Assembly (NCBI RefSeq): GCF_900292015.1
Contig: NZ_LR130759.1
Coordinates: 2,728,001-2,792,000, forward strand
Direction of reading: 5' to 3'
Origin: Mycobacterium basiliense
Lineage (GTDB): Bacteria; Actinomycetota; Actinomycetes; Mycobacteriales; Mycobacteriaceae
DNA: 64,000 nucleotides
Under the pieces are notes generated by a model. It searched no databases, was not told the DNA's origin, and was given only the letters and a program-made list of their open reading frames with translations. The position numbers were made by a program, and so were the translations under genes. Positions 23,939-25,204 of the stretch are shown here, piece after piece (within the stretch, counting starts at the first letter, position 1; each line of letters begins with the position of its first letter).

Positions 23939-23954
23939 ATACCCGATGGGGTAT
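23939..23954. promoter_or_regulatory. CsoR/CstR-type operator, box 1
   Basis: ATACCC-GATG-GGGTAT, a perfect 6+4+6 inverted repeat between the thioredoxin pseudogene and the CsoR-like gene. A -10-like TATATT (23952-23957) runs out of its right arm. It is one of three copies in 0.9 kb. Confidence 0.7.
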
Positions 23955-23982
23955 ATTCCGCTGTAAGCAACACTAGCGATAT

Positions 23983-23998
23983 ATACCCCCCCGGGTAC
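23983..23998. promoter_or_regulatory. CsoR/CstR-type operator, box 2
   Basis: ATACCC-CCCC-GGGTAC, one mismatch from the perfect repeat, 44 bases from box 1 centre to centre (about four helical turns). It overlaps TACTAT (23996-24001), a good -10 hexamer for the CsoR-like gene, giving a leader of about 28 bases that contains the GGGAGG ribosome site at 24023. Confidence 0.7.
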
Positions 23999-24035
23999 TA
24001 TGCTGGACAGAACCAACGAGACGGGAGGATCTACC

Positions 24036-24305
24036 GTGATCGGCGACGAGGACAGCATGGTGGCGGTGCTCAATAGGCTCCGCCGTGCCCAAGGGCAGCT
24101 TGCCGGCGTGATTGCCATGATCGAGCAGGGCCGTGACTGCAAGGACGTGGTTACCCAGCTTGCCGCGGTGTCACGCGCGCTCGACCGCGCTGGATTCAAG
24201 ATCGTTGCGACGGGGCTCAAGGAATGTGTCGCAGGTGCTAAGGCCGACGGCGCGGCGCCGCTCAGTGAGGCCGAGTTGGAGAAGCTGTTCTTGGCGCTGG
24301 CCTGA
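24036..24305 (+). CDS. CsoR/CstR-family (DUF156) repressor
   Basis: An 89-aa all-helical repressor of the CsoR/RcnR/CstR family: LNRLRRAQGQLAGVIAMIEQ (DNA-binding helix), DCKDVVTQLAAV carrying the first conserved Cys, and TGLKECV carrying the second. In copper-sensing CsoR the position four before the second Cys is His; here it is Gly, so the Cys-His-Cys copper site cannot form. Two Cys without the His are the pattern of CstR persulfide sensors, so thiol or persulfide sensing is the better inference. GTG at 24036 has GGGAGG seven bases upstream; the ATG at 24000 has none. Probably autoregulated by boxes 1 and 2. By position it may be Rv1766. Confidence 0.85.
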   Translation: MIGDEDSMVAVLNRLRRAQGQLAGVIAMIEQGRDCKDVVTQLAAVSRALDRAGFKIVATGLKECVAGAKADGAAPLSEAELEKLFLALA

Positions 24306-24365
24306 ACATGCCCGACAACACCCAACAACACGCGAAAACCATTGGAAATGATGGAGGCATCGGTT

Positions 24366-24779
24366 ATGACTCTCGCACTATCGACCACGCTGCGTACCAG
24401 CTTTGACGAGGCGGTCAAGCGCACTCGTGAGGCGCTGGCGGAGCAGGGCTTTGGCATATTGACCGAGATCGATGTGAAAGCGACGCTGAAAGCCAAACTT
24501 GGGGAGGACATGGAGGACTACCTGATTCTTGGCGCGTGCAATCCGCCGCTGGCCCACCGCGCGCTAGGGGTGAATCGCCAGATCGGCACGCTGCTGCCGT
24601 GCAATGTTGTGGTGCGGTCGGCCCCCGAGCAGGCCGGCGTGATGCTTATCGAAGCGATGAACCCGCAGATGTTGGCCGACGTTACCGGCGAACCGAAGCT
24701 CGTCCCGATTGCCGACGAAGTTACGGCCAGGCTGCAGGCGGCCATCGACGATCTGAAAAGCACGGACTCCAACGAATAG
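24366..24779 (+). CDS. DUF302 protein
   Basis: A 137-aa single-domain DUF302 protein. Characteristic segments: TEIDVKATLKAKLG, DYLILGACNPPLAHRAL with one Cys, and LLPCNVVVRS with a second, then VMLIEAMNPQML. DUF302 proteins lack an assigned activity; they occur often near thiol, sulfur or redox genes, and the two Cys here would allow redox chemistry. ATG at 24366 follows GGAGG by eight bases; an ATG at 24342 is weaker. It begins 60 bases after the repressor, so it is most likely in the same transcript under boxes 1 and 2. Confidence 0.8.
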   Translation: MTLALSTTLRTSFDEAVKRTREALAEQGFGILTEIDVKATLKAKLGEDMEDYLILGACNPPLAHRALGVNRQIGTLLPCNVVVRSAPEQAGVMLIEAMNPQMLADVTGEPKLVPIADEVTARLQAAIDDLKSTDSNE

Positions 24780-24821
24780 TCGCAGGCGTCAGCGCGCCCC
24801 GACGCCCGGCGCCTTCCCCAA

Positions 24822-24837
24822 ATACCCATAGGGGTAT
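24822..24837. promoter_or_regulatory. CsoR/CstR-type operator, box 3
   Basis: ATACCC-ATAG-GGGTAT, again a perfect 6+4+6 repeat, 10 bases before the AhpD-like start. TATAGT (24835-24840) overlaps its right arm and fits a -10 hexamer. Transcription about seven bases later would begin at the A of the start ATG at 24848, so the mRNA would be leaderless; there is no ribosome site. Confidence 0.72.
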
Positions 24838-24847
24838 AGTTGCGGCC

Positions 24848-25204
24848 ATGTCAGACCAACATCATCACGAGGTTCTCGAGGAGTTGCTGCCCCAACATCG
24901 CGCGTTGCGCAAACAGATCCCCGAGGTCTACAAGGGATTTGCGGCCTTAAGTGGTGCCGCGTTCGCCGACGGGGTCCTCAGCCGCAAGGTTAAGGAACTC
25001 ATGGCGATGGCCATCGGCGTCGTACAAGGTTGCGACGGCTGCATTGCATCGCACGCCCAAGCGGCGGTGCGTGCGGGCGCCACCGTCGAGGAGGCGGCCG
25101 AGGCGATCGGCGTGACCATCCTCATGCACGGCGGACCAGCCACCATTCACGGGGCACGTGCGTACACCGCGTTTTGCGAGTTCGCGGAGTCCGAGTCCGC
25201 CTAG
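24848..25204 (+). CDS. AhpD/carboxymuconolactone-decarboxylase-family protein (Rv1767-like)
   Basis: A 118-aa protein of the AhpD-like CMD family. The alkylhydroperoxidase signature is intact: Glu in KELMAMAIGVVQGCDGC, the redox pair C-D-G-C, and the proton-relay His in CIASHAQAAVRAG. A thiol-disulfide peroxidase-like or reductase-like role is likely; true decarboxylases lack the CxxC. It ends GARAYTAFCEFAE. Rv1767 of H37Rv (119 aa as recalled) is the likely counterpart. It has its own promoter and box 3, so it should be induced together with the repressor-DUF302 transcript. Confidence 0.85.
   Translation: MSDQHHHEVLEELLPQHRALRKQIPEVYKGFAALSGAAFADGVLSRKVKELMAMAIGVVQGCDGCIASHAQAAVRAGATVEEAAEAIGVTILMHGGPATIHGARAYTAFCEFAESESA

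What the first reader, a model, noticed from the sequence alone, without database searches (positions are those of the whole stretch)
23939..25204. Thiol-stress module with three ATACCC-N4-GGGTAT operators
Three 16-bp copies of the same palindrome (two perfect, one with a single mismatch) lie within 0.9 kb, all next to candidate -10 elements, around a CsoR-family repressor, a DUF302 gene and an AhpD-like gene. The repressor keeps two Cys but has Gly where copper CsoR has His, so persulfide or other thiol sensing is more likely than copper. The operator form matches what I know of CstR-type sites. This looks like a small, self-contained regulon whose physiological role in mycobacteria is not described as far as I know.
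Basis: partly seen in the sequence, partly recalled or inferred. Interest (0 to 1): 0.78.

Follow-up and report, generated by a model that had tools for sequence, protein, structure and literature searches.

The report
Sulfane-sulfur repressor regulon with MmpL exporter
A mycobacterial gene switch that most likely senses reactive sulfur has three copies of one DNA box around its small gene group, and the same box also sits in front of a membrane exporter elsewhere in the chromosome, which suggests that an exporter belongs to the mycobacterial reactive-sulfur response.

Summary
Observation confirmed: the window's only three sites within one mismatch of ATACCC-N4-GGGTAT (0.05 expected) lie around a CsoR-family repressor, a DUF302 gene and an AhpD-like gene. 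The repressor lacks the copper His; Cys35-Gly60-Cys64 is kept in 110 orthologous loci, and the genome has separate RicR and CsoR paralogues. Among the 80 closest genome-contig loci the box precedes the repressor in 70 (reversed control 0); 33 of 80 hold persulfide-dioxygenase/rhodanese, TauE or SQR-like genes. Operator and Cys spacing match the sulfane-sulfur sensor ScCsoR of Streptomyces (PMC7533328, passages). Two additions. First, spacer length separates paralogues: N4 here, N5 at ricR. Second, the regulon is not self-contained: a fourth, one-mismatch box precedes an mmpS-mmpL operon 0.5 Mb away. In the genus 25 of 30 closest mmpS genes carry the box, 8 of 20 intermediate and 0 of 20 distant ones; all 33 box-bearing mmpS fall in one clade. 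My two paper searches showed no title or abstract on an MmpL exporter under such a repressor. Ligand, binding and export substrate are untested.

The parts
23939..23954 (.). operator box 1 (ATACCCGATGGGGTAT), between the divergent thioredoxin remnant and the repressor
   Evidence: exact match; conserved block in the alignment of 15 distinct promoters, the window's included
23983..23998 (.). operator box 2 (ATACCCCCCCGGGTAC), 53 bp ahead of the repressor start; its one mismatch (final C) is itself conserved
   Evidence: ATACCC and GGGTAC in 15 of 15 distinct promoters; box at up to 1 mismatch within 150 bp upstream in 70 of 80 orthologous loci
23999..24004 (+). candidate -10 element TATGCT adjoining box 2
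   Evidence: sequence; inference, not reported by the generic promoter scan
24023..24029 (+). ribosome-binding site GGGAGGA
   Evidence: sequence; AGG invariant in the alignment
24036..24305 (+). CsoR-family (DUF156) repressor of the CstR/ScCsoR type, 89 aa, Cys35-Gly60-Cys64
   Evidence: PF02583 83.2 bits; C35 110 of 110, G60 and C64 109 of 109 with a letter; start by homology and RBS
24366..24779 (+). DUF302 protein, 137 aa, the only DUF302 match of the genome, 60 bp after the repressor; Cys58 and Cys79 conserved
   Evidence: PF03625 84.2 bits; single genome hit; C58 65 of 65, C79 64 of 65 distinct sequences
24822..24837 (.). operator box 3 (ATACCCATAGGGGTAT), 10 bp before the AhpD-like start codon
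   Evidence: exact match; also in L094 and L097, so 3 of the 14 distinct close loci with this gene order, window included
24835..24840 (+). candidate -10 element TATAGT overlapping box 3; spacing would fit a leaderless AhpD-like mRNA
   Evidence: sequence; inference
24848..25204 (+). AhpD-like (carboxymuconolactone-decarboxylase family) protein, 118 aa, with E-x11-CxxC-x3-H
   Evidence: PF02627 78.5 bits, TIGR00778; E50, C62, C65, H69 17 of 17 distinct sequences
23523..23900 (-). thioredoxin pseudogene, divergent from the repressor across box 1; in-frame stop ahead of the CxxC motif
   Evidence: PF00085; translation with stop; of 14 close loci printed, 7 have a near full-length match there, 2 a fragment, 5 none

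Best explanation
The 24036-24305 protein is a dithiol CsoR-family repressor of the sulfane-sulfur (CstR/ScCsoR) type. Reduced, it sits on ATACCC-N4-GGGTAT boxes that overlap or adjoin -10 elements and blocks its own operon (repressor-DUF302), the AhpD-like gene and, in trans, an mmpS-mmpL exporter operon near 3.245 Mb of the same chromosome. Persulfide/polysulfide (sulfane sulfur) reacts with Cys35 (and Cys64, probably of a neighbouring subunit), the repressor leaves the DNA, and thiol proteins (DUF302, AhpD-like, in relatives thioredoxin) plus the MmpS-MmpL exporter are made to remove or repair the sulfur load. Shown here: box positions, box conservation, Cys-Gly-Cys conservation, gene neighbourhoods, clade-specific boxes at mmpS. 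Inferred: binding, repression, the ligand, and what DUF302, AhpD-like and MmpL do.
For: Three boxes against 0.05 expected. Box at up to 1 mismatch within 150 bp upstream of the repressor in 70 of 80 orthologous loci, reversed control 0 of 80; 115 exact sites in 740 kb against 0 control. Relatives carry, within 3.5 kb and with at least 33% identity over 40% of the query: DUF302 50, TauE 29, PDO-rhodanese 25, rhodanese-YgaP 13, thioredoxin 8, SQR-like 5 of 80. The box lies within 250 bp upstream of 21 of 31 PDO, 11 of 13 rhodanese-YgaP and 20 of 24 MMPL genes, and of 0 of 24 P450/SDR/TetR/APH genes of the same loci. Cys35/Cys64 have the 29-residue spacing of ScCsoR Cys37/Cys66; ScCsoR binds ATACCn6GGTAT and is released by polysulfide (PMC7533328, passages). 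mmpS: box within 200 bp upstream in 25 of 30 closest homologues, reversed control 0 of 30, and 0 of 20 distant homologues; all 33 box-bearing mmpS in one clade of 42 tips (support 0.83); CstR-like gene within the fetched 1.5-kb flanks in 12 of 30.
Against: The window genome has no clear PDO-rhodanese (5 partial matches, best 28% identity), its single TauE gene has no box, and the thioredoxin is broken, so the textbook targets are absent or silent here. Only 33 of 80 related loci hold a PDO, TauE, rhodanese-YgaP or SQR-like gene; 25 of the 80 loci are shorter than 10 kb. TauE has its own box in only 7 of 30, YgaP-type genes in 0 of 19, SQR in 0 of 1. The own-genome mmpS box has a mismatch inside an arm, and 3 of the 7 sites of that quality in the genome are unassigned. 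8 of 20 intermediate mmpS genes had neither box nor linked repressor. Identity to the E. faecalis CstR chain (28 of 65) is only slightly above that to metal sensors. ScCsoR itself was not held. The 80 loci are the closest of 398 confirmed, not a random sample. No ligand or binding data.
Confidence: 0.78

Rival explanations
1. General thiol-oxidant or electrophile sensor: the same dithiol repressor is released mainly by peroxide, disulfide, hypochlorite, aldehyde or nitrosative stress rather than by sulfane sulfur.
For: AhpD-like protein with an intact peroxidase motif; thioredoxin and Rv2466c-like genes (Pfam: mycothiol-dependent nitroreductase) among neighbours, 8 and 12 of 80; TTHA1953 of Thermus lost binding on disulfide formation and was not released by NaHS (PMC10318464, passages).
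Against: Neighbours with the box in relatives include persulfide-dioxygenase and rhodanese genes, which point to sulfane sulfur; ScCsoR responds to polysulfide (PMC7533328, passages).
Confidence: 0.13
2. Copper regulon: the repressor senses Cu(I), or the copper repressor RicR acts on the boxes.
For: Same protein family; the ricR promoter site has the same arms TACCC/GGGTA; a hydrogen sulfide donor raised CsoR and RicR regulons in M. tuberculosis (review PMC7711268, passage), so copper and sulfur signals overlap.
Against: Copper-site His replaced by a conserved Gly and no Tyr before Cys35; genome has a RicR above NCBIfam's cut-off (189.7 against 175 bits; the window protein reaches 46.4) and a CsoR 74 of 79 identical to the M. 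tuberculosis chain; ricR has spacer 5, the boxes spacer 4; 67 of 80 orthologous promoters have an exact inner N4 site and 0 an exact site with another spacer (at 1 mismatch: N4 77, N3 2, N5 1, N6 1).
Confidence: 0.06
3. Nickel/cobalt sensor of the RcnR kind, as suggested for Frankia proteins that cluster with Rv1766 (PMC4531530).
For: That paper groups Rv1766-like proteins by a motif shared with RcnR/DmeR and notes co-occurrence with RcnA in Frankia (passage).
Against: RcnR ligands (recalled: His3, Cys35, His60, His64) are not kept: Gly60 and Cys64; no RcnA-like gene among the 20 recurrent neighbour clusters typed with Pfam (of 27 numbered c1-c27).
Confidence: 0.03

Closest known systems
ScCsoR (SCO0620) sulfane-sulfur circuit of Streptomyces coelicolor (PMC7533328, passages)
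   Same: CsoR-like repressor with two Cys 29 residues apart; 16-bp operator ATACCn6GGTAT; represses itself and sulfur genes; Streptomycetaceae relatives of the window protein exist (L071 71 of 88, L089 69 of 88 identical), and L089 lies among PDO, TauE and rhodanese matches
   Different: ScCsoR controls persulfide dioxygenase, rhodanese and a sulfite transporter; the window repressor sits with DUF302 and AhpD-like genes and has a box at mmpS-mmpL; ScCsoR's own sequence was not compared
CstR of Staphylococcus aureus / Enterococcus faecalis
   Same: dithiol CsoR-family persulfide sensor without the copper His; highest percent identity among the seven solved relatives compared (28 of 65 to the E. 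faecalis chain)
   Different: Asn in place of Gly60 in the E. faecalis chain; targets there are rhodaneses and CoA-persulfide reductase (PMC9405070, passages), in S. aureus CstA, CstB and SQR (PMC8148161, passage); their operators were not compared
RicR of mycobacteria
   Same: same family and same operator arms; paralogue in the same genome (L007/L131)
   Different: Cys-His-Cys with Tyr-Cys; spacer 5 instead of 4 at its own promoter
CsoR of M. tuberculosis (2hh7)
   Same: same family; paralogue in the same genome (L008, 74 of 79 identical)
   Different: copper triad Cys-His-Cys; its promoter shows a different G/C-rich site
MmpS4/5-MmpL4/5 exporters
   Same: the boxed mmpS-mmpL pair matches solved MmpL4, MmpL5, MmpS4 and MmpS5 over most of its length
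   Different: a separate mmpS clade marked by the box; at E 1e-53 found in 9 of 37 genus genomes and 0 of 24 others of the order

Membership tests
CsoR/RcnR (DUF156) family | family profile match | tested here: met
   PF02583 83.2 bits against cut-off 22.8
CstR-type persulfide sensor | two conserved Cys, 29 residues apart | tested here: met
   C35 110 of 110, C64 109 of 109 with a letter
CstR-type persulfide sensor | no His at the copper position between the Cys | tested here: met
   Gly60 in 109 of 109 with a letter
CstR-type persulfide sensor | 16-bp operator ATACC-N6-GGTAT as in ScCsoR | tested here: met
   two exact sites and one with a final C; published ScCsoR site (PMC7533328)
CstR-type persulfide sensor | sulfurtransferase, persulfide dioxygenase, SQR or TauE genes nearby | tested here: not met
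   none seen beside the window locus (19 row W), no clear PDO-rhodanese in the genome; in relatives 33 of 80 loci hold at least one
CstR-type persulfide sensor | persulfidation or polysulfide bridge releases DNA | not testable with these tools
   needs protein chemistry
Copper CsoR/RicR | Cys-His-Cys Cu(I) site | tested here: not met
   Cys35-Gly60-Cys64; RicR model 46.4 bits against cut-off 175
Copper RicR regulon | operator with 5-base spacer as at ricR | tested here: not met
   window boxes N4; own ricR promoter N5
RcnR nickel sensor | His at positions 60 and 64 (recalled) | tested here: not met
   Gly60 and Cys64; RcnR model 19.9 bits against cut-off 138
AhpD peroxidase | E-x11-CxxC-x3-H motif (recalled) | tested here: met
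   E50, C62, C65, H69 in 17 of 17; activity not tested

The most novel reading that the evidence does not exclude
Mycobacteria have a dedicated MmpS-MmpL exporter for reactive sulfur (for example persulfidated low-molecular-weight thiols or lipids damaged by them), held off by a CstR-type repressor; DUF302 is a thiol protein of the same pathway, and one spacer base (N4 against N5) keeps this regulon apart from the copper regulon of the paralogue RicR.
Probability: 0.25. Interest if true: 0.85.

Novelty: new variant of a known kind. Interest (0 to 1): 0.62.

Why it matters
Many MmpL exporters of mycobacteria have no known signal or substrate (general knowledge). A conserved operator that ties one MmpS-MmpL clade to a sulfane-sulfur type repressor gives that clade a likely signal and a testable class of substrates, and gives the Rv1766-type regulator, called uncharacterised in PMC4531530, a likely ligand. 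It also makes a simple rule testable: one spacer base separates the copper and the sulfur regulons of paralogous repressors in one cell. DUF302, a family of unknown function with two conserved Cys, gains a physiological context.

Tried and rejected
Copper and nickel sensing were put low on the residue signature and on spacer length. The looser count of sites in the window (up to 3 mismatches) shows no enrichment. Up-to-2-mismatch sites in the genome (103 against 62 for the reversed control) are too many to assign and were not used. Of the 7 distinct sites at up to 1 mismatch, three are the window's boxes, one is the mmpS box, one lies inside a 944-aa ORF that looks polyketide-synthase-like by eye (1785585), one was looked at and not assigned (1438796) and one was not inspected (4303403). 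The own TauE gene has no box. Rfam found nothing in 20000-30000 at gathering scores. No structure was predicted: solved relatives of DUF302 (1j3m, 1q9u) and of the AhpD-like protein (5dik) exist. Rv1766 and Rv1767 were up in an anaerobic test (PMC4916473, passages), which fits but does not test the idea; that the window locus corresponds to Rv1766-Rv1768 is partly recalled synteny. Deleting TbD1 (mmpS6-mmpL6) lowered CsoR- and RicR-regulated genes in M. bovis (PMC9048740, passages); whether mmpS6 belongs to the boxed clade was not tested. Paper searches on MmpL with CsoR (32 papers, 20 listed) and MmpL with persulfide (2 papers) showed no such regulation in titles or abstract starts; of these only PMC9048740 was opened. 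DUF302 with persulfide (2) or sulfide (6), CstR-persulfide-Mycobacterium (20) and Rv1766 (9): listings, of which a few were opened for passages. No paper was read in full. All ten paper searches are used.
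Full report
Observation. The three boxes are present as stated and are the only sites at up to one mismatch in the window, against 0.05 expected from shuffles. The two exact copies are the only exact copies in the 5,607,630-base genome. Genes: CsoR-family repressor (PF02583), DUF302 (PF03625), AhpD-like (PF02627). The likely repressor start is GTG 24036 behind GGGAGGA; at that position all 110 orthologous loci have M (86) or V (24). ATG 24000 overlaps the candidate -10 element TATGCT. 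The AhpD-like gene begins 10 bp after box 3, and TATAGT ends 7 bases before its ATG, which would fit a leaderless mRNA (inference).

The repressor. Against solved relatives the window protein lacks the copper His and the Tyr before the first Cys; the stretches read R-D-C and G-L-K-E-C. In 110 orthologous loci (80 from genome contigs, and 30 from genus genomes, which include the window itself and some species twice) Cys35 is present in 110, Gly60 and Cys64 in the 109 with a letter there. Identity is 28 of 65 to the E. faecalis CstR chain, 24-30 of 66-81 to six other solved chains, and 26 of 81 and 29 of 79 to the two paralogues, so identity alone does not settle the ligand. The genome holds two other family members: a RicR above NCBIfam's cut-off (the window protein is far below it) and a CsoR 74 of 79 identical to the M. 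tuberculosis chain.

Distribution. 126 of 148 genus genomes have a match at E 1e-10.

Operators in relatives. Within 150 bp upstream of the start codon, a box at up to 1 mismatch occurs in 70 of 80 loci (exact in 37), at up to 2 in 76; the reversed control in 0 and 1. Four loci (L015, L017, L019, L064) have none. Over the 739,953 bases of the 80 loci there are 115 exact boxes against 0 reversed. In 15 distinct promoters of the closest relatives, the window's included, the two boxes are the conserved blocks: box 2 arms ATACCC/GGGTAC are invariant, including the final C that counts as a mismatch. Box 3 precedes the AhpD-like gene in the window, L094 and L097, 3 of 14 distinct close loci with this gene order.

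Neighbours. Within 3.5 kb of the repressor in 80 loci, counting matches of at least 33% identity over 40% of one representative: DUF302 50, TauE/SafE 29, MMPL 25, MBL-rhodanese (persulfide-dioxygenase type) 25, YgaP-type membrane protein 19, rhodanese-YgaP 13, Rv2466c-like 12, AhpD-like 9, thioredoxin 8, SQR-like 5; 33 of 80 loci hold at least one of PDO-rhodanese, TauE, rhodanese-YgaP or SQR (looser counts; Pfam of representatives). The box lies within 250 bp upstream of 21 of 31 PDO-rhodanese, 11 of 13 rhodanese-YgaP, 20 of 24 MMPL, 9 of 17 Rv2466c-like, 7 of 14 thioredoxin, 3 of 9 AhpD-like, 7 of 30 TauE, 4 of 50 DUF302, 0 of 19 YgaP-type and 0 of 1 SQR genes, and of 0 of 7 P450, 0 of 7 SDR, 0 of 5 TetR and 0 of 5 APH genes; reversed control 0 throughout. 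Low figures for DUF302, TauE and YgaP-type genes fit operon positions behind another boxed gene, but that was not tested one by one.

Literature. ScCsoR of S. coelicolor represses persulfide dioxygenase, rhodanese, a sulfite transporter and itself, binds ATACCn6GGTAT at two sites, and is released by polysulfide through Cys37, with Cys66 involved (PMC7533328, passages). The window's Cys35 and Cys64 have the same spacing of 29. TTHA1953 of Thermus loses about 10- to 15-fold affinity when one base is added to or removed from its 4-base spacer (PMC10318464, passages). A Frankia paper calls Rv1766 an uncharacterised CsoR-like regulator and leans to nickel (PMC4531530, passage). Rv1766 and Rv1767 rose in an anaerobic test (PMC4916473, passages). 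I read no paper in full.

Spacer rule. The own genome has 19 TACCC-N3-7-GGGTA sites: 4 with N4 (three are the window boxes), 10 with N5, 5 with other spacers; reversed control 10. The ricR promoter has an N5 site, and another N5 site lies between a 135-aa ORF without Pfam match (LpqS-like by recall) and a multicopper oxidase (L136); the other 8 N5 sites were looked at and not tied to copper genes. In the 80 orthologous promoters an exact inner box occurs with N4 in 67 and with any other spacer in 0; over the whole loci 184 N4, 2 N5, 1 N3 and 1 N7. So spacer length probably keeps the two paralogues on different sites; this is inference from sequence.

A distal target. One of the few other sites at up to 1 mismatch, G000:C1:3248212-3248227 (L170 7213), lies 14 bases ahead of the first possible start codon of an mmpS-mmpL operon (150 and 1003 aa; PF05423, PF03176), between ORFs that look like blaC and a methyltransferase (by eye and recall). 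The pair resembles MmpS4/5-MmpL4/5. I searched 98 genus genomes with this MmpS and looked at 200 bp upstream plus the first 45 bases. The 30 best loci (one per genome, the window's own included): box at up to 1 mismatch in 25, up to 2 in 27, reversed control 0; a CstR-like gene within the fetched flanks in 12. Twenty less similar mmpS genes (49-53% identity, picked by me from the printed list): 0 of 20 even at 2 mismatches. Twenty intermediate ones (51-67%, likewise picked): box in 8, no box but the repressor gene linked in 4 (L192, L208, L209, L211), neither in 8. In a tree of 72 mmpS tips the clade that best fits the box (chosen after the fact, midpoint root) holds all 33 box-bearing tips, 42 tips in all (support 0.83), and none of the 20 controls; of its 9 tips without a box at up to 1 mismatch, 7 lie near a CstR-like gene (L142, L160, L166, L192, L208, L209, L211; L160 and L211 are one gene) and 2 have a two-mismatch site (L150, L152). 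Genomes whose best mmpS match has an E-value exponent of -50 or lower: 40 of 85 with the repressor, 0 of 13 without (Fisher p 0.0006; at -53 34 of 85, p 0.004; at -60 26 of 85, p 0.02; shared ancestry not corrected). At E 1e-53 it is found in 9 of 37 genus genomes and 0 of 24 other genomes of the order. I conclude that this MmpS-MmpL clade belongs to the regulon, and that in the window genome it lies away from the repressor.

What is missing here. The window genome has no clear PDO-rhodanese, one TauE gene without a box, one DUF302, and a thioredoxin frame with an in-frame stop. At the same place 7 of 14 close loci have a near full-length thioredoxin match (L011, L012, L091, L093, L099, L100, L106), 2 a fragment (L010, L018) and 5 none (L014, L094, L095, L097, L101). 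The module looks like a reduced form of a sulfane-sulfur regulon. DUF302 has two nearly invariant Cys (C58 65 of 65, C79 64 of 65 distinct sequences) and the AhpD-like protein a complete E-x11-CxxC-x3-H motif (17 of 17), so both could do thiol chemistry; their substrates are unknown.

Verdict. The regulator type and operator are known from Streptomyces; the mycobacterial cargo, the spacer rule and above all the exporter target are what seems new. The species was not identified: the nearest named relatives of the repressor are M. gastri, M. innocens and M. paraense (88% in the best segment).

Noticed in passing
L027, L029, L032, L034, L042, L043, L059, L060, L062, L075 and others: In Nocardia, Rhodococcus, Gordonia and Williamsia a different, 717-aa MMPL transporter (best NCBIfam model MmpL3, far below its cut-off) lies within 900 bp of the CstR-like gene in 23 of 80 loci and mostly has its own boxes (20 of 24), so two distant MMPL subfamilies seem to have come under this repressor.
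   Followed up: partly
23523-23900: Divergent thioredoxin frame has an in-frame stop ahead of its CxxC motif, although box 1 beside it is conserved.
   Followed up: yes
L136 1001-1015 (G000:C1:4781686-4781700): N5 site of the RicR type between a short LpqS-like ORF (name recalled) and a multicopper oxidase, a likely copper-regulon promoter.
   Followed up: partly
L058: Contig labelled MAG Bifidobacterium breve carries a CstR-like gene and a P450-TetR-SDR cluster close to those of mycobacterial loci; the bin label is probably wrong.
   Followed up: no
L192 and L211 (unnamed genus genomes): AhpD-like (divergent), CstR-like, DUF302 and mmpS in one place, perhaps the older arrangement.
   Followed up: partly
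L015, L016, L019, L021, L055, L057, L058: A P450-TetR-SDR cluster recurs next to the repressor in several loci; none of the 19 P450, SDR and TetR genes tested carries the box.
   Followed up: no
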